Shown piece after piece: positions 52,501 through 64,000 of a stretch of DNA of 64,000 nt; position 1 is the first letter of the stretch, and each line of letters starts with the position of its first letter. Under the pieces are notes generated by a model that searched no databases, was not told where the DNA came from, and saw only the letters and a list, made by a program, of their open reading frames with translations. The position numbers and the translations under genes were made by a program. The DNA is from an uncultured Alphaproteobacteria bacterium (GTDB taxonomy: Bacteria; Pseudomonadota; Alphaproteobacteria; Rs-D84): assembly GCA_947054455.1 (NCBI GenBank), contig CAMRWN010000001.1:200966-264965 (forward strand). Direction: 5' to 3'.

Positions 52501-52524
52501 CACCGGCGAATGCCGGTGTTTTTA
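52501..52524. terminator. Terminator hairpin CACCGGCGAATGCCGGTG + T-tract
   Basis: Inverted repeat between convergent ychF and the ABC-F gene. Confidence 0.85.
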
Positions 52525-54141
52525 TGTCGTGCGGCGGGTGTTTTCCGAATAATAGTATTCCAGTTTTTCGTGGTCGTATTCTTCTATTCGGCCGGCTGGC
52601 AGAACCAGCATTCTGGTTATGCCGATTTGTTCGACAAAATCTGGATTGTGGCTGACCACGATTATCGTGCCGTCATAGTCGCGGAAATTGTCGCCAATCA
52701 CCGCCTGGGTTTCAGGGTCCAGATGGTTTGTAGGTTCGTCCAGAATCAGCATGTTCGCACGGCGCAGCATTATCTTGCACAGCGCCACGCGCGCCCGTTC
52801 GCCGGGCGACAGGACGCCAATGCGCTTGAACACGTCGTGGCCTGAAAACAGGAAATTCCCCAGCACCGCGCGCAGTTGTTCATCGCTGTAGTCCGGATGC
52901 GCGACGTTTTCCATTATCGTCTTGTCCGAATCCAGCTGTTCCAGTTCCTGGGCATAGTAGGCGATGTCCGTTTTCGGGTTGATTTGTATCGAACCGCGTT
53001 CCGGTTTCAGGTATCCCATTATCAGCTTCAACAGCGTGGATTTTCCGGCGCCGTTTTCGCCGACAACCAGAAAACGCTCGCCGCCGGTGATATAAAACGA
53101 CAGTTTCCGGTACAACAGACGTGCGCCGGGAAACCTGAACCACAGGTCGTCAACCAGTATCGGCGTACGCGCGCCCTGGCGCAGCGGCGACAGGTTCATC
53201 TTCAGTTTTTTGTATGTCTGTTCGCGCGTTGTTCGCGCCGCCATGATTTTTTGCAATTGTATCTCGCGCGTGCGGCCGACGCGTTTTATGGAATGGTTCG
53301 TCGGGCTGGCTGCGCGTGCGCGTTCGATGAATTCGCCCAGCTTTTTTATCTGACGCTGTTCGGATTCGATTTTTTGTTCGCGGGCGCGCCGTTGTTCACG
53401 TTCCTTGTTTTTATATTCGTCCCAGTTTCCGTCGAATACGGATATTTTATGCGTGGTCTTGTCGATTTTTAAAATCCGGCCGACAACATCGTTCAGGAAT
53501 TTCGTATCGTGGCTGATTATTATGACCATGCCGCGATACCGCCGCAGATAGTCGGTGATAAATGCGCGCGTGGATGCGTCAAGATGGTTTGTCGGCTCGT
53601 CCGCCAGCAGGATTTCCGGCATGGAATACAACAGGCGTGCAAAGGCCACCTTGGACTTTTGACCACCCGACAAATCGCGCAGCCGCATGTCCAGCATGCC
53701 CGCGTCAATGTTCATGTTTTCAATCAGTTCCAGCAGGGCGTCTTCGGCACTGTATGCGTCATAGTATTCCAATTCTGCCTGCAGACGCGAAATGTTTTCG
53801 GCCGCCGCCCCGTCGTCGGGGTTTTGGGCTATCGCCTCGTATGCGGCGTGCAGTTCGGCCTCCAGTTTCTTTATGGGACGCCCGGACATCAGAAATTCCC
53901 ACACTGACATGTCGGGCGTTTCAATTTCTATTGTCTGTGGCAAATATCCCAGACGCGCCCCGCCTGTGTCTATATGGCCGTAATCGGGTTTCAGTTCGCC
54001 TGTCAGTATGCGCAGCAGGGTTGTTTTACCCGCGCCGTTTACGCCGACTATCCCGACCTTGTCCCGCGGGGCCAGATGAAATTCCGCATCGTCATAAATG
54101 ACGTTCGCGCCAAAAGACAAAGAAAGTTGTTTTACATGCAT
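52522..54141 (-). CDS. ABC-F family ATPase
   Basis: Two ABC domains with LSGGQKSKVAFARLL and LSPGERARVALCKIML signatures, no TM segments. Confidence 0.93.
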   Translation of the reverse strand: MHVKQLSLSFGANVIYDDAEFHLAPRDKVGIVGVNGAGKTTLLRILTGELKPDYGHIDTGGARLGYLPQTIEIETPDMSVWEFLMSGRPIKKLEAELHAAYEAIAQNPDDGAAAENISRLQAELEYYDAYSAEDALLELIENMNIDAGMLDMRLRDLSGGQKSKVAFARLLYSMPEILLADEPTNHLDASTRAFITDYLRRYRGMVIIISHDTKFLNDVVGRILKIDKTTHKISVFDGNWDEYKNKEREQRRAREQKIESEQRQIKKLGEFIERARAASPTNHSIKRVGRTREIQLQKIMAARTTREQTYKKLKMNLSPLRQGARTPILVDDLWFRFPGARLLYRKLSFYITGGERFLVVGENGAGKSTLLKLIMGYLKPERGSIQINPKTDIAYYAQELEQLDSDKTIMENVAHPDYSDEQLRAVLGNFLFSGHDVFKRIGVLSPGERARVALCKIMLRRANMLILDEPTNHLDPETQAVIGDNFRDYDGTIIVVSHNPDFVEQIGITRMLVLPAGRIEEYDHEKLEYYYSENTRRTT

Positions 54142-54300
54142 TATGCGCATATTTTATGTATTTAACCGCCAATCGCAAGCGCTTTTAATCCAGCCGCCGC
54201 CGCGCGTCAGGATATCATGTCTATGTATGCGGCGGCATCCGTGCGGTATAATCGTTTATATCGGTTTGGATTGATAATTGATACATGGCGGGATTGACTG

Positions 54301-54621
54301 ATGATGCATATGCGGGGATTATTGGAATTTTTTATGCGGCGCGGATGTGATGTTTACGGCCGCTGGCACGAGGCGCCCTCCGCCGATATCTGTCGCGGTA
54401 TTGTTTTGCGGCGCGACGGTACGGCGTCGTCGGTTAATATGGTTCCGGTTTCATATACATCGTGGCGCCGGCGCGGGCGGATGCTGGTTCTGGCGGGGAC
54501 GGTGCGCGATTGCGCCCGCCCGATTGATTTCACCGAAACATTTCAGATAAGACATCTGTCGCGTGATAATATGGTTCTGCAGCGCGACGGTCAAACACAT
54601 GTGTATATGCGCGTAGATTGA
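54301..54621 (+). CDS. Small hypothetical protein
   Basis: 106-aa ORF with core-chromosome-like codon usage; no recognised family. Confidence 0.4.
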   Translation: MMHMRGLLEFFMRRGCDVYGRWHEAPSADICRGIVLRRDGTASSVNMVPVSYTSWRRRGRMLVLAGTVRDCARPIDFTETFQIRHLSRDNMVLQRDGQTHVYMRVD

Positions 54622-54883
54622 TTATTGATTAATGCGCTATGCATAAATCCGTGAATTTTTTCAAAAAATCAACCAGTGCTAGATTATTTTAATTGTGTTA
54701 AAAAATAGAAATATTTTAAAAAATCAACCAAAATAAGAATTTTATTTAAGTATTTTATAGCGTGCCATGTTTTGTGTTCGCCTGTTATGGATTATGTAAT
54801 AATATAATCTGTGCCATTGCGGATATATGTGGCTATAGAGTTGATAAATGAATAATAAATAAGTTTTTGCGGCCCGAAATAAA

Positions 54884-54907
54884 ATAAAAAGCCCAGAATT
54901 TGGGCTT
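54884..54907 (-). terminator. Intrinsic terminator (minus strand) downstream of the truncated tRNA
   Basis: Minus strand: AAGCCCAAATTCTGGGCTTTTTATTTT. Confidence 0.8.
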
Positions 54908-54913
54908 AAAACT

Positions 54914-54951
54914 TGGTTGCGGAGTGTGGATTTGAACCACAGACCTTCAGT
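54914..54951 (-). pseudogene. 3' fragment of a tRNA gene (putative att site, chromosome-island junction)
   Basis: Minus strand TTAACTGAAGGTCTGTGGTTCAAATCCACACTCCGCAACCA: anticodon-stem 3' strand, variable loop, 5-bp T stem (TGTGG/CCACA), acceptor 3' strand, CCA. No D arm or 5' acceptor strand follows. Confidence 0.8.
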
Positions 54952-55051
54952 TAATGGGCCAGGCGATAAATTGAGATAAATAATTCTAAAATTTCCTTGA
55001 TTTTCTGCGGATTGTATCTTATGTTGTGTTTAAAATAAATCAACCAAAAAT

Positions 55052-55090
55052 GGTAGCAAAAAACGCCTGTGGTAGCAAATAGGTAGCAAA
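55052..55090 (+). repeat. Three direct repeats GGTAGCAAA (55052, 55071, 55082)
   Basis: Exact 9-mers spaced 19 and 11 bp, between the tRNA fragment and the integrase gene. Confidence 0.8.
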
Positions 55091-55114
55091 AGAGGTTGGG
55101 TAATGGGTCAAATT

Positions 55115-55170
55115 CAGTTGTACGAAAATATCGGACAACTGAACATGGCAGTTGGTTACAATTTGTAACC
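55115..55170. repeat. Inverted repeats CAGTTGT-N13-ACAACTG and GGTTACAATTTGTAACC
   Basis: Read directly; both upstream of the integrase. Confidence 0.75.
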
Positions 55171-55431
55171 AGTTCAAGGATAAGGCGGGTTTCTGGCTTT
55201 TTTCTAAAATGGAAATGGCCGGATTCTGGCGACTCATTCCATTTTTGCATAGGTCGTGCAAACTATTTTGGTTTTGGGTGTTCCAAAATGGAACTTTTCC
55301 AGATTTATGCGGATTTCGGTGATGGTGGCAAAAATTGCTAGTGTCGCGGAAATGTACGTTTTTATCGTATGGTTCAATATGTGCAAAAAATGCACTTTCC
55401 CAGAAATCTGGGGATTATAAAGGAATAAAAT

Positions 55432-56613
55432 ATGGCAAAGAATGCTTTTAATTTTACTGAACGTGGGTTGGAGGCTTTACCGATTCCAGCATCGGGCCAG
55501 GTGGCATATTATGATTCCGGGACCAAGGATGGGTTGTGTGTTATTGTGACCTATGGTGGAACCAAGACTTATTATTCATATTTGAAGTTCCAGGGTACGG
55601 CCCTGCGTACTAAAATCGGGCGGGTTGGTGATATTAAGCTGATTGATGCCAGGGCAGAGGCGCACACCATGCGTGAAATGGCGACCAAGGGCAATGACCC
55701 AAGCCAGAAGCGACGCGAGGCCTTGCATGATATCTCGTTCAAAGACTTTTATGAAAAGGTATATAAGCCGGAATATTCGCTTGTACATAAAAAGCCGCGA
55801 TCGGTTGCTAATGATGACAGTATCTTTACACATCGGTTGGGTGATTTTCATAATCGTAAATTATTAAGCATTAAATCGACTGAGATTGAAAAATTGCATA
55901 ACAAGACCAAACAGACACATAGCTCTTATACGGCGAACCGGGTTTTGTCGCTGATTAAGCATATGTATGTTATCGCGGCAAAATACGGTTATATGAATGG
56001 GTATGATAATCCGGCGCTTGGTATTCGAAAGTTCCCCGAAAAAAGCCGTGATAGATTCTTGCAATCGGACGAGTTTCCAAAGTTCTTTGCCGCATTGAAT
56101 AACGAGCAGAACGATGTTTTTAAGGCTTATGTCTGGATTTCGCTGTTTTCTGGCCAGCGGCGCAGTAATGTTTTGACTATGCGATGGTCCCAGGTAGACT
56201 TTGAAAACAATTATATGTATTTCCCGGATACCAAGAATGATGAGCCGCACCGGGTGCCGATGGTGAAGCAATTAAGGGAACTTTTATTAAAAATCAACCA
56301 AAATACGAATTCTGATTGGGTTTTACCGAGTAATAAGAGTAAAAGCGGCCACTTGGAAGACCCAAAAAGACCGTGGCAGGATTTGTTGGCGCGTGCCGGC
56401 ATAGCAAACTTTCGTTTGCATGATATGCGCCGCACAAACGGTAGTATGCAGGCGATTACAGGCGCCAGCCTGCCGATCATAGGTAAATCGCTTGGCCATA
56501 AATCCACCAGCGCAACGATGGTTTATGCCAGATTATCGCTGGATCCTGTATTAGAGGCGATGCAAAAAGCCGCCGACCGCATGGTGGAGTTAGGTGAAAA
56601 GGGTGTTAAATAA
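55432..56613 (+). CDS. Tyrosine recombinase/phage-type integrase (P4-like)
   Basis: N-terminal DUF4102-like region (YYDSGTKDGLCVIVTYGGTKTYYSYLKFQGTALRTKIGRVGDIKLIDAR), catalytic SGQRRSNVLTMRWSQVD...HDMRRTNGSMQAITGASLPIIGKSLGHKSTSATMVYARL. Confidence 0.95.
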   Translation: MAKNAFNFTERGLEALPIPASGQVAYYDSGTKDGLCVIVTYGGTKTYYSYLKFQGTALRTKIGRVGDIKLIDARAEAHTMREMATKGNDPSQKRREALHDISFKDFYEKVYKPEYSLVHKKPRSVANDDSIFTHRLGDFHNRKLLSIKSTEIEKLHNKTKQTHSSYTANRVLSLIKHMYVIAAKYGYMNGYDNPALGIRKFPEKSRDRFLQSDEFPKFFAALNNEQNDVFKAYVWISLFSGQRRSNVLTMRWSQVDFENNYMYFPDTKNDEPHRVPMVKQLRELLLKINQNTNSDWVLPSNKSKSGHLEDPKRPWQDLLARAGIANFRLHDMRRTNGSMQAITGASLPIIGKSLGHKSTSATMVYARLSLDPVLEAMQKAADRMVELGEKGVK

Positions 56614-56621
56614 AAAATGTC

Positions 56622-56673
56622 GACTATAATAGAAATTTAGTTGATTTTTAATAAAATTTCTATTATGATAGTC
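56622..56673. repeat. Long imperfect inverted repeat between integrase and ATPase genes
   Basis: GACTATAATAGAAATTT (56622-56638) against AAATTTCTATTATGATAGTC (56654-56673), 17 paired bases with a 3-nt bulge. Confidence 0.8.
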
Positions 56674-56680
56674 AAAAAGG

Positions 56681-57964
56681 TTGATAAAGATGAGAGAACG
56701 GCTTATAAAACGTCCAGAATATCTGGAAAAATTGAAAAAATGGTCAAAATACCCCGATACAATAAAGATTGTGACCGGGGTTCGTCGATGTGGAAAATCT
56801 AAGCTGTTTACTCTGTTTGGTCAATATTTAATGTCCAGCGGGGTTGATGAGTTGCAAATTCATACTATCCAGTTGGATATGTTGGAAAATCGTGAGCTTT
56901 TGGATCCGGTAAAGTTGTATGAACATGTTTTAGGGCGGCTTGTTTCGCATAAGATGAATTATGTTTTTTTGGACGAAATACAAATGGTTCCAGATTGGCA
57001 GATGGTTGCCAATAGTTTAAAAGAGAAAGAAAACGTAGACTTGTATCTGACGGGTTCCAATGCGTATATGTTTTCCAGTAAATTAGGGACGATATTGGGC
57101 GGCCGGTATGTAGAAATAAAAATGCAACCATTATCGTTCAAAGAATATGTCGAAGGTGTTCATGAAATACAAAAAATTAGCGATGTACCCATGATACATA
57201 TGTTTGGTAGTCCCAATTTAATGGCTGATTATCAAAGATATGTAGTTCAAGGTGGTTTCCCACAGACTTTGAAATACGACGGGGATCCGGAGCTTATAAA
57301 TACATATCTTATGGATACCGTCTATAATAACACAATAAGTAAAGACATAATAGAAAGATACAACTTAAGAAGTCCTGAAAAGCTGAATGAGGTTGTTAAG
57401 TTCTTGTTTGATAACATATCCCATGAAACCAGTATTTTGAATATAGAACGTCAGTTGGGTAGTAGTGTCAGTAATGATTCTATAAACAAGTACGTTCAAG
57501 GATTATTGGATAGTTATCTGATATATCGCTGTGATCGTATGGATTTAAAGGGCAAGAAGATATTAACTTCATCGCCTAAGTATTATATCTGTGATATGGG
57601 TCTTCGGCATGCTGTTTTGGGCGGCAGAATAGGTGATGGTGGTAAGATACTGGAAAATATTGTTTATCTGGAGTTAATAAGAAGGGGTTATAATGTTTAT
57701 GTTGGTAAAATTGGTCGGAAAAACCAGAATGGCGAATTCAAGGAACTGGAGGTGGATTTCATAGCTACCAAAGAAGGCGGCGTGGTTGAATATTATCAGG
57801 TTGCCTGGTCTGTTGAGGAAGAAGCAGTTTTGAAGCGAGAACTTGGTTCGTTAGAACAGATAAATGACAGTTATCCTAAATATTTAATAACCATGGGTAC
57901 CGGATCCGGCGTGCATAATGGAATACAACACGTCAATGCCTTGCAGTGGTTGATGGAGAAATGA
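56681..57964 (+). CDS. AAA ATPase with C-terminal DUF4143-like domain
   Basis: KIVTGVRRCGKSKLFTLFGQYL, NYVFLDEIQMVPDWQMVANSLK, DLYLTGSNAYMFSSKLGTILGGRYVEIKMQPLSFKEY; C-terminal nuclease-like ELEVDFIATKEG. Confidence 0.9.
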   Translation: MIKMRERLIKRPEYLEKLKKWSKYPDTIKIVTGVRRCGKSKLFTLFGQYLMSSGVDELQIHTIQLDMLENRELLDPVKLYEHVLGRLVSHKMNYVFLDEIQMVPDWQMVANSLKEKENVDLYLTGSNAYMFSSKLGTILGGRYVEIKMQPLSFKEYVEGVHEIQKISDVPMIHMFGSPNLMADYQRYVVQGGFPQTLKYDGDPELINTYLMDTVYNNTISKDIIERYNLRSPEKLNEVVKFLFDNISHETSILNIERQLGSSVSNDSINKYVQGLLDSYLIYRCDRMDLKGKKILTSSPKYYICDMGLRHAVLGGRIGDGGKILENIVYLELIRRGYNVYVGKIGRKNQNGEFKELEVDFIATKEGGVVEYYQVAWSVEEEAVLKRELGSLEQINDSYPKYLITMGTGSGVHNGIQHVNALQWLMEK

Positions 57965-58009
57965 TGATAATTTATGCGTAAATATTATCAAAGTGTGCTT
58001 AGATGTTAT

Positions 58010-59209
58010 TTAAACAAAGTTGTGTACTTTTGTTGTGATAAAATCAACAGCAGTTTTTATATCGTTTTCGTCGGTGAAGCGCCCAACGGTTATTCTGAAA
58101 GAATGTTCCGCGTCATTTGTTGATAGTCCCATGGCTTTCAAAACATGCGATGGCTCAATAACACCACTGGTACAAGCAGAGCCTGTTGAGAAAGCGACCT
58201 TAGGCTGAATAGAATATATTAGCTGTTTGGATTCTATCTCAGGTATCAAGAGATTCAAGTTACCTGGGTGGCGATGAGACATACAACCATTGATTTTTAT
58301 GGTTGGGATCTTCGTTTTGATTTCGTTCAATAAATGATTTCGCAAACATTCTAATTCTGTGCGTTCGTCCTGTTTGCACTGGGTCATAATTTCTGCTGCT
58401 TCCCCGAAACCAGCAGCCAAGAAAGTCGGAATCGTTCCGGACCGAAATCCAAACTGCTGGCCTCCACCGTACAACAATGGTTCTGGTTTTAGCTTTGCGG
58501 TATTGCTGACAAATAAAGCGCCTATACCTTTTGGACCATAGATCTTGTGGGCAGATAGACTCATGAAATCGATATTGTTGTCTATAACATCGAGGTTTTC
58601 ATAACAAGCCTGGGCTGCATCCGTATGGAATAACGCGCCACATTCAGAACATAATGCACCGATTTCAGAAATGGGTTGAACTGTGCCGACTTCGTTGTTT
58701 GTGGTCATAACCGAAACCAATAAAACATCATTGTCCAACATTTCGCTAAACTGTTGCATGTCTATAATGCCATCCGGCGTCACAGGTATATGTTTTACCA
58801 CGAACCCAAAACGAGTCAAGAAACGAGCTGCCCCCAGAACACATTTGTGTTCGATAGAAGATACCAAAATCGTTCTGCGGCTGATGTTTTTTGACATCGC
58901 GGCATAACCCAGACCGATGATGACCAGATTGTTAGATTCTGTGGCCCCAGATGTCAAAATGATTTCTTCGGGTAATGAGCCGATATAGTCTGCAATTTGT
59001 GTCTGTGCCTTTTCCACGGCGGTATTAGCGGTCCAGCCGATAGAATGCTCAGAAGAATGTGGATTACCAAATTCACTTGTCATGAAGGGTAGCATCGCGG
59101 AAAGGACGCGGTGATCCAGGGGAGTCGATGCTTGATAGTCTAAATAAATAGATCTAACCCCTTGATTGTTGTGTAAATTTTCCAAAACATCTAAACGATT
59201 TGTCTTCAT
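58010..59209 (-). CDS. Cysteine desulfurase, SspA/DndA-like
   Basis: IYLDYQASTPLDHRVLSAMLPFMTSEFGNPHSSEH; DFMSLSAHKIYGPKGIGALFV (PLP lysine); FSTGSACTSGVIEPSHVLKAMGL (catalytic Cys). Divergent from the DUF4007 gene. Start placed at internal Met. Confidence 0.92.
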   Translation of the reverse strand: MKTNRLDVLENLHNNQGVRSIYLDYQASTPLDHRVLSAMLPFMTSEFGNPHSSEHSIGWTANTAVEKAQTQIADYIGSLPEEIILTSGATESNNLVIIGLGYAAMSKNISRRTILVSSIEHKCVLGAARFLTRFGFVVKHIPVTPDGIIDMQQFSEMLDNDVLLVSVMTTNNEVGTVQPISEIGALCSECGALFHTDAAQACYENLDVIDNNIDFMSLSAHKIYGPKGIGALFVSNTAKLKPEPLLYGGGQQFGFRSGTIPTFLAAGFGEAAEIMTQCKQDERTELECLRNHLLNEIKTKIPTIKINGCMSHRHPGNLNLLIPEIESKQLIYSIQPKVAFSTGSACTSGVIEPSHVLKAMGLSTNDAEHSFRITVGRFTDENDIKTAVDFITTKVHNFV

Positions 59210-59313
59210 GAGATGATAATAATTGCATTTAGTCACATTTTTTTGGTAGATTTCACCAGAGGAAGTTGTTATAGTTTCTACTGGAAGAAACATCCAGGGG
59301 ATTATAAATCATT

Positions 59314-60267
59314 ATGAAAAAGAATGCAACTATAATTGATAGCAACGCACGTCTCGTATTTTCAGGACACGAAACATTCCCGATGAGATACGGATGGCTA
59401 AAAAAATCAATGCAAGCCGCAGAAAACCATGAAAAAACAGGAATCAAAAGTTTCTTTGCGTCCGAGAACGCGATCGTTGAGTTGGGTGTCGGTAAAAACA
59501 TGGTATCGTCAATGAAATACTGGGCTTTGTATTCCGGATTCTTTGACTTAACTGATTCAAAAGAGCTGACTATTATGGGCTTTGGTAGATGGTTGATTGG
59601 TAAAAACGGTGTAGATCCGTGGATGGAAAATCTGGCCACGCTATGGTTTATACATTGGAACCTAGTGCGCGGTAAAGACAACGGTGACTATCTATTCACT
59701 TATTACTGGTTTTTTAACCATTATAACTTCGCGACGTTTGATAAGGATATATTGGGCAAGCAGTTGTGCACATTTATAAAGGAAAGAATAGATGAAAGTA
59801 AGATGCCGGCTGCACTGACACTGGACCGAGATATCGATTGTTTCCTGGGGATATACTCGCCAAAGTTGAAGAAAAAGAAAACAGATGAAGATAGTATAGA
59901 GTCGCCGTTGGTTGAATTGAATTTAATAGCTCCAAAGACCAGACGTGATGTGTTTCAGGTAAACAGAGGTGTAAAGCCTAGCTTGAGCATAGATACTTTC
60001 TTGTTTTGTTTGTTGATGTTTTGGAAGGATTATTCTCCAAATGCGAAAACAATGTCATTTGAATCTATTTGTTACCAACCCATGTCTCCGGGGCGTGTGT
60101 TCTTGTTAAATGAAGATGCGGTTGCCGGATATGTGCAAAACATAGCTAAGGCAACAAATGGTTTAATGGAATATTCCGAAACAGCTGGGCTAAAAGAAAT
60201 AATTTTGTCCAAAGATGTAGATTTCGAAAAACTTGCATACGAATACTTCAAAAGGAACTATAAATGA
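59314..60267 (+). CDS. DUF4007-family protein, SspB-like
   Basis: LVFSGHETFPMRYGWLKKSMQAAE...FFASENAIVELGVGKNMVSSMKYWALYSGFF is the characteristic DUF4007 N-terminal pattern. Confidence 0.85.
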   Translation: MKKNATIIDSNARLVFSGHETFPMRYGWLKKSMQAAENHEKTGIKSFFASENAIVELGVGKNMVSSMKYWALYSGFFDLTDSKELTIMGFGRWLIGKNGVDPWMENLATLWFIHWNLVRGKDNGDYLFTYYWFFNHYNFATFDKDILGKQLCTFIKERIDESKMPAALTLDRDIDCFLGIYSPKLKKKKTDEDSIESPLVELNLIAPKTRRDVFQVNRGVKPSLSIDTFLFCLLMFWKDYSPNAKTMSFESICYQPMSPGRVFLLNEDAVAGYVQNIAKATNGLMEYSETAGLKEIILSKDVDFEKLAYEYFKRNYK

Positions 60268-63200
60268 TAAAAACATTTTCGGATCTGATAAAGATAAATG
60301 CCAAGTTTTGTCGTTCCATAAATATTGAAAAAGATTTAAATAATGAGGATATCCTGAAAGGTTTCGTGTGTCCGAATTCATTCCGGATCGCGCTGCGTGG
60401 GTTGGCTGAAAATGTGTCTGAAACTCAGCAGGCAGCATTTACCTGGACCGGACCATACGGAGCTGGTAAATCCAGTCTTGCGTTGCTGTTGTCGTCCCTG
60501 CTTAGTGAAAATAAAAAACTGCATGACATCGGAGTTAGCATCATAGGACAGAACGAGGCGCGTTCGTTCTTCAAAGGAATCCATTATAAGTCTGGCTGGA
60601 CAGTCTTGCCGATTGTTGGAGATGTTGCCGACCCGAAGGCTCTGATAGAAACAGAATTAAAAAAGCATCTAAAAACCAAACCAAAGGACCTGTTTGATGG
60701 CCTGGATAAATTGGCTACTCAGAAAGACGGTTTGATCATATTTATAGACGAAATGGGGAAGTGCTTAGAGGCGCAGGCCAAAGGCATCGGCGACGTGTAT
60801 TTCTTTCAGAAATTGGCCGAATTCGCATCACGCAGCAACGGCAGAATTATTCTGATAGGAATTCTGCACCAGTCGTTTGTAGACTATGCGCGTTCCTTGC
60901 CGCACACGATAAGAGACGAATGGAGTAAGATTCAGGGGCGTTTCATTGACGTTCCAATCAATACCGCTGGCGAAGAACAGCTGGAGTTGATCGGTCGGGC
61001 CATAAACACGCCGGCACCAGACCTGTCAACAATCAAGCCAATTGCTGAGCAAGTAGCTGATACTATTTCCAAGAATAGACACATAATATCTAAAACGGAT
61101 CTGGTTGATGTGTTGTGTCGTTGTTGGCCGATCAATCCGGTTGTCGTATGTCTACTTGGTCAGATATCCAGAAAGAAATTCGGACAAAACCAACGTAGCA
61201 TATTCTCATTCTTGTCTAGTGCCGAGCCATATGCGTTCAGAGATTTCATAAATAACACTGAATATTCCAAGGACACGATGTATTCACTATCCAACTTGTT
61301 TGATTACATCAAGACGAACCTGGAATCTATGATAGCCGCATCTTCAGAGTCTAAAATTTGGCACATTGCCATGGATGCAATCCAAAAGATATCAGCCAGA
61401 GACTTTACAGAACAACACTTGGATGTCCTGAAAAACATAGCCATGATAGACATATTCAGTGGTTCATCAGGATTGGTTGCATCAAAAGAATTGCTGAAAT
61501 ACTTGTTTGATGATCAAAAGAAACTAGATAAGATCATAAAAGACTTAGAGGGCGCATCGGTAATTCTCTTCAAAGCCCATAAAGGCGCATATTCAATATT
61601 TGAAGGTAGTGATTTTGATATAGATGCTGCTTTCAGAGAGGCTTTCAAACATGTAGCAGGATTAGAAACATCAAAACTGGCAGAAGTAGTGTCGTTTAAA
61701 CCTGTGATTGCGAAAAGATACTACCACCAATTCGGGACTATGCGATGGTTTGATGTGGTTTTGACATCAGTGCCAGATTACAAGCAGACTATTGAGAATG
61801 CGTGCAAAAACACCAATGCAGTTGGATTGTTTTGTATACTGTTACCGAATGGTAAGGTAGAAGAAAAACAATGCGAGATGGTCTTGCAAAGGAACAAAGA
61901 TAAATATAGTTTGCCTGTCTTCTTTAGTGTGGCAAAAAATGCCAGACTGATACACGAACATTTGCGAGAATTGCTTGCGTTAGAATGGATACAAAAAAGT
62001 ACATTACCAGGATTTGTTGGGGATACGATTGCCCAGAAGATTGTTGAAGATAGATTGAATATCGTATCAGATCTGCTAAGTATTCGTCTTGAAGAGGTGA
62101 TTCAGGGGGCTGATTGGACTTATCAGAAGGCAATATTTACTAATGTCCCTACGAGTAAACTGTCTGCACTGGCATCCGATATTTGTGAAACAAAGTACAA
62201 ATATTGTCCAAAGATCAAAAGTGAGCTTGTAAATAAGAATAAACCATCAGCTAGCGCAAATACAGCATTGAATAAATTACTCAAGATTATGGTTAACAAT
62301 AATGGTGAATCAAACTTGGGTATATCTGGATTCAGTACGGAAGCAGGTTTGCTGAAAATCCTACTGCAAGACACAGGTTTGTATATTGACAAGGGATATA
62401 CGTTACCCGAAAAGGATAGCGAGTTATACAATCTATGGCGAGGCACAGACGAATTTCTAAAGACATCGTTCTCTAAGACCGCTGCAGACGTATATGCAAT
62501 GTGGTCTAGTGAACCCTTTGGGATAAAAAACGGATTGCACACAGTTCTGTTGCTGTCGTATATTTTAACTAAAACCAAAGAAATTGCGGTATATCGAGAT
62601 GGAATGTACACCCCGAAGGTGGATGATTTATTCGTAGATTATCTGATCAAGGACCCAAAACGCATTTCGTTGAAACTGGTCAGGGCTGATGATGTGTCAA
62701 ATAATATAATCATGTCGGTTGTAAAAGCCTTGCAGGAAACCGGAACGACCGAACAATTGACAGAACCGTTGGATGTGGCCAGAAAACTGGTGTCTTTTGT
62801 GCGCGGCCTGCATCCTTGGGTATTAAAAACAAAGACATTAACCAATCAAACAGTCCGAGTGCGAGAGTTGATAAAATCGGCCAATGATCCGAATAAACTG
62901 TTGTTTGAAGATTTACCAAAATTATTCCCTTCTGCAAACATGTATGAAGGGATAAAGACCGCTCTGACAGAGTTATCAGAGGTGTATCCGGCGATGCTGC
63001 AAGCAATCGGAATACTGATGACAAGCGAATTGGACATCCCTCTGGCAACACCGTTCTACCTGGAACAATTGAGAGAACGCGCTAAAAACATCAAAGGTGT
63101 ATCTGGCAACTTTGGTATAGAGGCATTTTCAGCCAGATTATCCACATTTAATTCTACTGCGGCGGATATAGCTGGAATAATTGGCTTGGCTTCAAACAAG

Positions 63201-63530
63201 CCACAAACCGAATGGATTGATTTGGATATTGAGAACGCCAAGAAAGAGATTTTGCGCCTGTGTACAGAATTCAAGAAGGCGGAATTGTATGCCAAGGTCA
63301 AGGGTAGATCTGCATCCAGACAAGCAATCGCCTTTATTGCTGGTATTGGTGGTAGTGCCGAAGTTATTTCGGGTGATTTTGACTTGCTGACATCCAAGAC
63401 CAAGGAAGTAGCGGTTTTGAAAAACAAACTGGCAAAGATACTAAATGAAGAAAAAGACAATGCGTTGGTACTCACTGCTTTGTCAGAAATAAGCATAGAA
63501 TTGTTGAAAAAGAACCAAGGAACGAAATAA
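60264..63530 (+). CDS. Large P-loop ATPase (1088 aa), SspC-like
   Basis: AAFTWTGPYGAGKSSLALLLSSLL (Walker A), DGLIIFIDEMGKCLEAQ (Walker B); overlaps the DUF4007 stop by 4 nt and the next gene by 1 nt. Confidence 0.78.
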   Translation: MIKTFSDLIKINAKFCRSINIEKDLNNEDILKGFVCPNSFRIALRGLAENVSETQQAAFTWTGPYGAGKSSLALLLSSLLSENKKLHDIGVSIIGQNEARSFFKGIHYKSGWTVLPIVGDVADPKALIETELKKHLKTKPKDLFDGLDKLATQKDGLIIFIDEMGKCLEAQAKGIGDVYFFQKLAEFASRSNGRIILIGILHQSFVDYARSLPHTIRDEWSKIQGRFIDVPINTAGEEQLELIGRAINTPAPDLSTIKPIAEQVADTISKNRHIISKTDLVDVLCRCWPINPVVVCLLGQISRKKFGQNQRSIFSFLSSAEPYAFRDFINNTEYSKDTMYSLSNLFDYIKTNLESMIAASSESKIWHIAMDAIQKISARDFTEQHLDVLKNIAMIDIFSGSSGLVASKELLKYLFDDQKKLDKIIKDLEGASVILFKAHKGAYSIFEGSDFDIDAAFREAFKHVAGLETSKLAEVVSFKPVIAKRYYHQFGTMRWFDVVLTSVPDYKQTIENACKNTNAVGLFCILLPNGKVEEKQCEMVLQRNKDKYSLPVFFSVAKNARLIHEHLRELLALEWIQKSTLPGFVGDTIAQKIVEDRLNIVSDLLSIRLEEVIQGADWTYQKAIFTNVPTSKLSALASDICETKYKYCPKIKSELVNKNKPSASANTALNKLLKIMVNNNGESNLGISGFSTEAGLLKILLQDTGLYIDKGYTLPEKDSELYNLWRGTDEFLKTSFSKTAADVYAMWSSEPFGIKNGLHTVLLLSYILTKTKEIAVYRDGMYTPKVDDLFVDYLIKDPKRISLKLVRADDVSNNIIMSVVKALQETGTTEQLTEPLDVARKLVSFVRGLHPWVLKTKTLTNQTVRVRELIKSANDPNKLLFEDLPKLFPSANMYEGIKTALTELSEVYPAMLQAIGILMTSELDIPLATPFYLEQLRERAKNIKGVSGNFGIEAFSARLSTFNSTAADIAGIIGLASNKPQTEWIDLDIENAKKEILRLCTEFKKAELYAKVKGRSASRQAIAFIAGIGGSAEVISGDFDLLTSKTKEVAVLKNKLAKILNEEKDNALVLTALSEISIELLKKNQGTK

Positions 63531-64000
63531 TGTCTGAAGAAAAGGTAAAACATGTGTTGGGTATATCTGGAGGAAAAGACAGTGCGGCCTTGGCTGTCTA
63601 TATGAGAGACAATTATCCGGAAATCGACATAGAATATTTCTTCACGGATACAGGTAAGGAATTACCAGAGGTCTATAGTTTTTTGAGTAAGTTGGAAGGT
63701 TATCTAGGAAAACCGATACAGAGATTAAATCCAGAAAGAGACTTTGATTTCTGGCTGATGCAGCATAATAATTTTCTGCCGTCTGCACAGGCGAGATGGT
63801 GTACAATTTGTATGAAATTGAAACCTTTTGAAAGTTGGGTAAATGGTTTTCTTAAGGATGGGTATACGGTGTATTCTTACGTTGCTATAAGATCTGATGA
63901 AGAATATAGAGAGGGATATCAGTCCCGTCAAGATAACCTAATTGTTAAGATGCCATTTCGAGAAAATGGTATAGATAAAAGTGGAGTAATAAACATACTA
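63530..64000 (+). CDS. PAPS-reductase/ATP-pyrophosphatase-fold protein, SspD/DndC-like (C-terminus outside window)
   Basis: Translated by eye: MSEEKVKHVLGISGGKDSAALAVYMRDNYPEIDIEYFFTDTGKELPEVYSFLSKLEGYLGKPIQRLNPERDFDFWLMQHNNFLPSAQARWCTICMKLKPFESWV...; SGGKDS motif and WCTxxMKxxP. Confidence 0.88.
   Translation, partial: MSEEKVKHVLGISGGKDSAALAVYMRDNYPEIDIEYFFTDTGKELPEVYSFLSKLEGYLGKPIQRLNPERDFDFWLMQHNNFLPSAQARWCTICMKLKPFESWVNGFLKDGYTVYSYVAIRSDEEYREGYQSRQDNLIVKMPFRENGIDKSGVINIL

What the first reader, a model, noticed from the sequence alone, without database searches (positions are those of the whole stretch)
54914..54951. Truncated tRNA 3' end with its own terminator marks the island's left junction
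The minus-strand sequence has the anticodon-stem 3' strand, T arm, acceptor 3' strand and CCA, followed by an intact terminator, but no 5' half. This is what remains when a tyrosine recombinase integrates within a tRNA anticodon region and the island brings a replacement 3' end. Isotype cannot be fixed; an NUU anticodon is possible if the variable loop is GGTC.
Basis: partly seen in the sequence, partly recalled or inferred. Interest (0 to 1): 0.6.

Follow-up and report, generated by a model that had tools for sequence, protein, structure and literature searches.

The report
Displaced initiator-tRNA tail marks defence island
A 21-kb mobile island carrying phage-defence genes has inserted into the only initiator tRNA gene found in this small gut-type alphaproteobacterium, replacing that gene's second half with its own copy and pushing the original tail 21 kb away; this is a clean new case of a well-known kind of insertion.

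Summary
Confirmed, and the isotype is solved. The minus-strand fragment is positions 40-76 of the initiator tRNA-fMet(CAU), followed by the original chromosomal terminator. An intact tRNA-fMet lies 21 kb to the right on the same contig and strand. It shares an exact 39-bp direct repeat with the fragment but has a different, island-borne terminator. The 21,015-bp interval carries a tyrosine recombinase beside the fragment, putative integrase arm sites (GGTAGCAAA) at both ends, a second recombinase, an HTH_17 protein, and an SspABCD/PbeA-PbeC-type phosphorothioate defence system. Nine congeners have the empty site: tRNA-fMet near the ABC-F gene, no integrase. At least five others carry related islands there, with the integrase at the fragment end; these integrases fall in one clade, and related ones sit beside tRNA-Asn fragments. 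Comparative data place the crossover at tRNA positions 40-48. This is a new member of a known kind (Islander-type tRNA-targeted island). In passing I found a large family of RtT-like structured repeats behind many tRNA genes in this order, not matched in Rfam.

The parts
54914..54950 (-). displaced 3' part (positions 40-76) of the initiator tRNA-fMet gene
   Evidence: identical over the 39-bp repeat to the intact tRNA-fMet at G000:C1:276894-276970
54912..54950 (-). left copy of the 39-bp att direct repeat CTGAAGGTCTGTGGTTCAAATCCACACTCCGCAACCAAG; the right copy is at C1:276892-276930, outside the window, 21,015 bp away
54880..54907 (-). original chromosomal terminator of tRNA-fMet, now behind the fragment
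   Evidence: sequence; in sister species G039 the fragment's flank, not the intact tRNA's flank, aligns with the empty-site flank of G051 (score 39 versus -3)
54951..64000 (.). part of the 21-kb island inside the window; it continues to C1:276930 on the same contig
   Evidence: direct repeats plus empty-site comparison; G000-G039 identity 91-92.5% in the island ends against 66-70% in the flanking chromosome
55052..55090 (+). three GGTAGCAAA direct repeats (55052, 55071, 55082), putative integrase arm-type sites
   Evidence: only three occurrences in the 64-kb window; the only other place in the genome matching the left-end DNA is C1:276799-276825, inside the right end (E 6.6e-6); conserved spacing in G039, G016, G004, G012
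55432..56613 (+). tyrosine recombinase (393 aa), inferred integrase of the island
   Evidence: Phage_integrase 7e-22 and Arm-DNA-bind_3 4.3e-10; fMet-site integrases fall in one supported clade
56681..57964 (+). AAA_14/DUF4143 ATPase, cargo
   Evidence: Pfam, PADLOC PDC-S01 8.3e-135
58010..59293 (-). SspA/DndA-type cysteine desulfurase
   Evidence: PADLOC SspA 4e-135, DndA 2.4e-132
59314..60267 (+). SspB (DUF4007)
   Evidence: PADLOC SspB 2.7e-91
60264..63530 (+). SspC ATPase
   Evidence: PADLOC SspC 1123 bits
63530..64000 (+). start of SspD (PAPS-reductase type); the gene runs past the window end
   Evidence: L034:495-1334, PADLOC SspD 1.3e-134
52522..54150 (-). ABC-F gene, chromosomal left flank
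   Evidence: Pfam ABC_tran; close to the intact tRNA-fMet in island-free congeners
54301..54621 (+). Lipocalin_3 gene, chromosomal left flank
   Evidence: Pfam 1.5e-17; near tRNA-fMet in G042, G029, G022, G057, G018, G007

Best explanation
The fragment is the displaced 3' end of the initiator tRNA-fMet gene. A 21-kb integrative island carries, at its attachment site, a copy of tRNA positions 40-76 plus a terminator. Its tyrosine recombinase (55432-56613) exchanged strands with the chromosomal tRNA gene within positions 40-48, just 3' of the anticodon loop. The chromosomal 5' half (positions 1 to ~40) was thereby joined to the island's 3' half and terminator, making the intact tRNA-fMet now at C1:276894-276970. 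The original 3' half with its own terminator was left at window 54950-54880. Shown by sequence: the repeats, the empty site, the island-borne terminator, the defence cargo, and recurrence of the site in congeners. Inferred: which recombinase did it, the role of the GGTAGCAAA arm sites, and whether the island can still excise.
For: An exact 39-bp direct repeat, same strand, on one contig 21,015 bp apart. The right copy lies in an intact tRNA with initiator features (C1-A72 mismatch, CAT anticodon); the other two CAT tRNAs in the genome have a normal first pair. Nine congeners have DUF374 - tRNA-fMet - ABC-F (with or without lipocalin) and no integrase there: G038, G003, G018, G057, G029, G022, G007, G051, G042. 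At least five others carry related islands here (G039, G049, G016, G004, G100), with the integrase at the fragment end and reading away from it. Island-end DNA is 91-92.5% identical between G000 and G039, against 66-70% in the flanking chromosome. In G039 the fragment's flank matches the empty-site flank of G051, and the intact tRNA's flank matches that of G000's intact tRNA. In G016 the fragment keeps the old T stem (AGTGG/CCACT, echoed by the repeat unit behind it) while the intact gene has GGTGG/CCATC, so the crossover lies 5' of position 49. The fMet-site integrases share one clade (99/98 support) apart from close relatives found beside tRNA-Asn fragments.
Against: No excised circle, reads or expression were available. 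The genome is an incomplete assembly (85.9%), so a second initiator gene elsewhere cannot be excluded. A second recombinase (L034:9900-10976) lies near the other end and could contribute. In G003, which has no island, the terminator resembles the one carried by the G049 and G010 islands, which is unexplained.
Confidence: 0.97

Rival explanations
1. The second tyrosine recombinase (358 aa, C1:273900-274976), not the one beside the fragment, carried out the integration.
For: It is also conserved (92.5% DNA identity) at the right end of the island in G039 and has a Phage_integrase domain at 5.3e-10.
Against: It was not found in the complete islands of G049 and G016, which use the same site with the same layout; only the 55432-type integrase is common to all, and its clade tracks the target tRNA.
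Confidence: 0.08
2. The fragment is a copy of the tRNA 3' end made by the local RtT-like repeat process seen behind other tRNAs in this clade, not by an island.
For: Four other tRNAs of this genome have exact 19-nt copies of their 3' end 138-185 bp downstream.
Against: Those copies start at position 58, lie within about 0.2 kb and follow a structured unit; this copy starts at position 40, is 21 kb away, and is flanked by an integrase and arm-like repeats.
Confidence: 0.01
3. The fragment is a working half-gene (split or trans-spliced tRNA) or a small RNA.
For: It keeps an intact terminator.
Against: A complete tRNA-fMet exists in the same genome; no 5' partner was found; the bases upstream are island attachment-site sequence shared with relatives.
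Confidence: 0.01

Closest known systems
tRNA-targeted integrative islands as defined by Islander (PMC4383910)
   Same: Intact tDNA plus displaced same-strand 3' fragment marking the two ends, a tyrosine integrase inside, and the target gene restored by island sequence. Islander lists 3760 islands with 3' fragments and 2083 with anticodon-centred crossover.
   Different: The target is the single initiator tRNA found in the assembly, the island also supplies a new terminator, and the integrase sits at the fragment end. None of these makes it a different kind.
Vibrio tRNA-Met hotspot islands (VPaI-1, VVI-I, VSP-II; PMC1464126)
   Same: A series of different 24-43 kb islands in the same tRNA-Met locus in related species; VPaI-1 has a 45-bp direct repeat and a type I restriction gene.
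   Different: Different integrases and hosts. That paper calls the site tRNA-Met without saying, in the passages read, whether it is the initiator.
PYG1 of Pyrococcus yayanosii (PMC5126054, discussed in PMC9897764)
   Same: A 21.4-kb island between a partial and a complete tRNA gene with 44-bp direct repeats.
   Different: Archaeal, tRNA-Gln target.

Membership tests
Islander-type tRNA-targeted genomic island | complete tRNA gene plus end fragment of the same gene in the same replicon and orientation | tested here: met
Islander-type tRNA-targeted genomic island | 3' fragment lies downstream of the tRNA (configuration filter) | tested here: met
   minus-strand tRNA at C1:276894-276970, fragment at C1:255879-255915
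Islander-type tRNA-targeted genomic island | tyrosine integrase gene within the interval | tested here: met
   Phage_integrase plus Arm-DNA-bind_3 domains; Islander's Xer and integron exclusion profiles were not run
Islander-type tRNA-targeted genomic island | length between 2 and 200 kb | tested here: met
   21,015 bp
Islander-type tRNA-targeted genomic island | uninterrupted site in relatives | tested here: met
   nine congeners
Islander-type tRNA-targeted genomic island | excision to a circle and re-integration | not testable with these tools
   needs reads or PCR
Initiator tRNA-fMet as target | CAU anticodon and an unpaired first acceptor position (C1-A72) | tested here: met
   CGCGGAG/CTCCGCA in L027; the other two CAT tRNAs start with G1
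SspABCD phosphorothioate system (cargo) | SspA, SspB, SspC and SspD genes together | tested here: met
   PADLOC hits to all four in neighbouring genes; chemistry not tested
PbeABCD effector module (cargo) | PbeA, PbeB, PbeC and PbeD genes | tested here: inconclusive
   PbeA and PbeC strong, PbeD weak (3.4e-5), no PbeB hit

The most novel reading that the evidence does not exclude
In this order of small-genome gut-type alphaproteobacteria, the 3' half and terminator of the initiator tRNA are repeatedly overwritten by a dedicated clade of defence-carrying islands. The sequence and possibly the expression of the host's translation-initiator tRNA are then set by whichever mobile element is resident (in G016 the T stem was changed at three positions). 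The same loci are also used by an undescribed, expanded family of RtT-like structured units that copy the last 19 nt of many different tRNAs.
Probability: 0.35. Interest if true: 0.55.

Novelty: new member of a known kind. Interest (0 to 1): 0.33.

Why it matters
It gives exact ends for a 21-kb phage-defence island and identifies its target, an essential initiator tRNA that appears to be single-copy. It also shows a clade of integrases whose target can be read from sequence: fMet in one clade, Asn in a sister group. The site is a hotspot in the genus, so the fragment's 39-bp sequence can be used to find further islands with varied cargo. Because fragment and intact gene can differ, as in G016, the locus records which tRNA bases came from the mobile element.

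Tried and rejected
NUU anticodon (Asn/Lys type): rejected, since the intact partner is CAT initiator tRNA. T-loop crossover: rejected for this island because in G016 the T-stem positions on both sides of the T loop differ as a block between fragment and intact gene. Rfam and ARAGORN do not see the fragment. The genome-contig scan found only one other carrier, an uncultured alphaproteobacterium MAG. Literature searches for integration into initiator or formylmethionine tRNA gave nothing specific; the standard reference on tRNA sublocations (Williams 2002) is not held. The side family of tRNA-linked repeats first looked categorically new; comparison with the E. coli tyrTV locus showed the same layout as the known RtT repeats, so I do not claim a new kind. 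No earlier description of the alphaproteobacterial units was found, but only two imperfect literature searches were made.

Full report
Observation. On the minus strand, window 54950-54914 is CTGAAGGTCTGTGGTTCAAATCCACACTCCGCAACCA: the 3' strand of an anticodon stem, variable loop, perfect T stem with a T loop, acceptor 3' strand, A and CCA. A terminator hairpin with a T run follows. No tRNA is called there by ARAGORN or Rfam, as expected for a half gene.

Identity. A search of the genome in which the window lies (G000, 728 kb, 4 contigs, 85.9% complete; window = C1:200966-264965) found exactly one other match, at C1:276888-276946 on the same strand. ARAGORN calls an intact tRNA-Met(CAT) there. 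Its sequence CGCGGAG...CTCCGCAACCA has the C1-A72 mismatch of bacterial initiator tRNAs; the two other CAT tRNAs of the genome start with G1. The fragment is therefore the 3' part of the initiator tRNA-fMet. The shared direct repeat is exactly 39 bp, CTGAAGGTCTGTGGTTCAAATCCACACTCCGCAACCAAG. The copies are 21,015 bp apart on one contig.

Which end is which. On the minus strand the order is: chromosome (DUF374, LpxK genes on the other strand) - intact tRNA-fMet - island - fragment - original terminator - lipocalin - ABC-F. In island-free congeners the intact tRNA-fMet lies between DUF374/LpxK and lipocalin/ABC-F, with no integrase: G038, G003, G018, G057, G029, G022, G007, G051, G042. The terminators settle which 3' end is original. 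In G039, a congener with a 96%-identical integrase, the 80 nt behind the fragment align with the 80 nt behind the intact tRNA in empty-site G051 (score 39), while the flank of G039's own intact tRNA does not (score -3). That flank instead matches the flank of G000's intact tRNA (score 63.5). So the fragment carries the chromosomal terminator, and the intact gene carries a terminator brought by the island.

Horizontal origin. Between G000 and G039 the DNA is 91% identical from the left repeat through the integrase and 92.5% identical over 3.1 kb at the right end, but only 66-70% identical in the flanking chromosomal genes. The breaks in identity fall at the tRNA repeat. The middle of the two islands differs: G000 has SspA, SspB, SspC, SspD, PbeA, PbeC and a weak PbeD match; G039 has AbiL-like and restriction-like genes. 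A degraded island at the same site in G010 carries a type II restriction-modification set and only a broken piece of the integrase.

Where the crossover is. In G000, G039, G049, G016, G004 and G012, island-type sequence (consensus ...TGACCCATTAA) switches to tRNA sequence at CTGAAGG, position 40. G016 gives a downstream limit. Its fragment has T stem AGTGG/CCACT and its intact tRNA has GGTGG/CCATC. The repeat unit behind the fragment contains an inverted copy of the AGTGG form, which marks that form as the old chromosomal one. All three differences moved together, so strand exchange was 5' of position 49. The crossover therefore lies in positions 40-48, just 3' of the anticodon loop.

Machinery. 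The 393-aa protein at 55432-56613 has Arm-DNA-bind_3 and Phage_integrase domains. GGTAGCAAA direct repeats occur three times at 55052-55090, nowhere else in the window, and again near the right end. Searching the genome with the left-end DNA returns only that second place. Their distance from the core is conserved in G039, G016, G004 and G012, which fits arm-type binding sites; this role is inferred. An HTH_17 protein (2.9e-7) and a second recombinase lie at the right end; the second recombinase was not found in the complete islands of G049 and G016. Integrases found at the fMet site form one clade (99/98 support); sister integrases at 54-55% identity lie beside tRNA-Asn fragments, and a 53% one beside a Lys-like fragment, in the same layout. 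A more distant integrase (about 42%) beside an fMet fragment in G027 falls outside that clade, so the site has been used by more than one lineage.

Comparison with the known. The arrangement meets the published criteria of Islander (PMC4383910). Islands in tRNA-Met loci are known in Vibrio (PMC1464126), and a 21.4-kb island with 44-bp repeats is described in Pyrococcus (PMC9897764). This is a new member of a known kind.

A second kind of 3'-end copy at the same locus, noticed in passing. Many congeners without the big island have a unit of about 150-180 bp right behind tRNA-fMet that ends with an exact or near-exact copy of the last 19 nt of the tRNA (positions 58-76), sometimes in tandem. The same units stand behind tRNA-Arg(TCT, CCT), His, Ser(CGA), Pro(CGG) and Lys, each ending in a copy of its own tRNA and starting with an inverted T-arm-like segment. 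The alignment of 21 units supports a structure with 15 of 24 pairs showing two-sided changes. A covariance model finds it in 118 of 190 genomes of the order, with up to 10 matches per genome. No Rfam family matched the units tested. The E. coli tyrTV locus has the same layout, with three exact 19-nt copies at 178-bp spacing annotated by Rfam as RtT, and the model gives weak full-length matches on those units (E 0.12-0.35). These look like a large, tRNA-diverse relative of RtT; homology is suggested, not shown.

Limits. The assembly is an incomplete genome; single-copy status of the initiator tRNA is for this assembly only. The host is placed as an alphaproteobacterium only through the congener G039, whose integrase contig is titled uncultured Alphaproteobacteria; 'gut-type' is my inference from genome size and is not tested. 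Mobility, excision and effects on tRNA expression were not testable.

Noticed in passing
L132, L138, L048, L175, L178-L184, L188, L190-L193, L196-L225 (congeners); not in the window: A family of ~150-180-bp structured units directly behind many tRNA genes (fMet, Arg-TCT, Arg-CCT, His, Ser-CGA, Pro-CGG, Lys), each ending in a copy of the last 19 nt of its own tRNA and opening with an inverted T-arm-like segment, often in tandem (four copies 164 bp apart in G104). Strong covariation, 118 of 190 genomes of the order, no Rfam match; same layout as E. coli RtT repeats at tyrTV.
   Followed up: partly
L010, L020, L029, L030 (own genome G000, outside the window): tRNA-Arg(TCT), Arg(CCG), Pro(GGG) and Ser(GGA) each have an exact 19-nt copy of their 3' end 138-185 bp downstream, after different cores that the model does not recognise.
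   Followed up: partly
L098 (G016:C38:14000-26800): Island integration changed the T stem of the host initiator tRNA at three positions (AGTGG/CCACT in the displaced fragment, GGTGG/CCATC in the present gene).
   Followed up: yes
window 56681-64000 and L034:495-9065: Cargo of the island: DUF4143 ATPase, SspA-SspD, PbeA- and PbeC-like genes, a sigma-70-like gene with a weak GcrA/MzaA match, and a DUF2779/Cas4-like gene.
   Followed up: partly
L071, L072, L074 (G025, G044, G048): Paralogous integrases at 53-55% identity sit beside 3' fragments of tRNA-Asn and of a Lys-like tRNA, in the same layout as here.
   Followed up: partly
L034:9900-10976 and about L034:11600-11830: Second tyrosine recombinase and an HTH_17 protein (possible excisionase) at the tRNA end of the island; in G004 a 509-aa recombinase occupies a similar place.
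   Followed up: partly
L047/L131 (G003): No island and ABC-F 244 bp away, yet the terminator behind tRNA-fMet resembles the island-type terminator of G049 and G010; possibly a trace of an excised or deleted island.
   Followed up: partly
L100 (G010:C1:220141-225588): Degraded island at the same site with a type II restriction-modification set and only a broken remnant of the integrase.
   Followed up: partly
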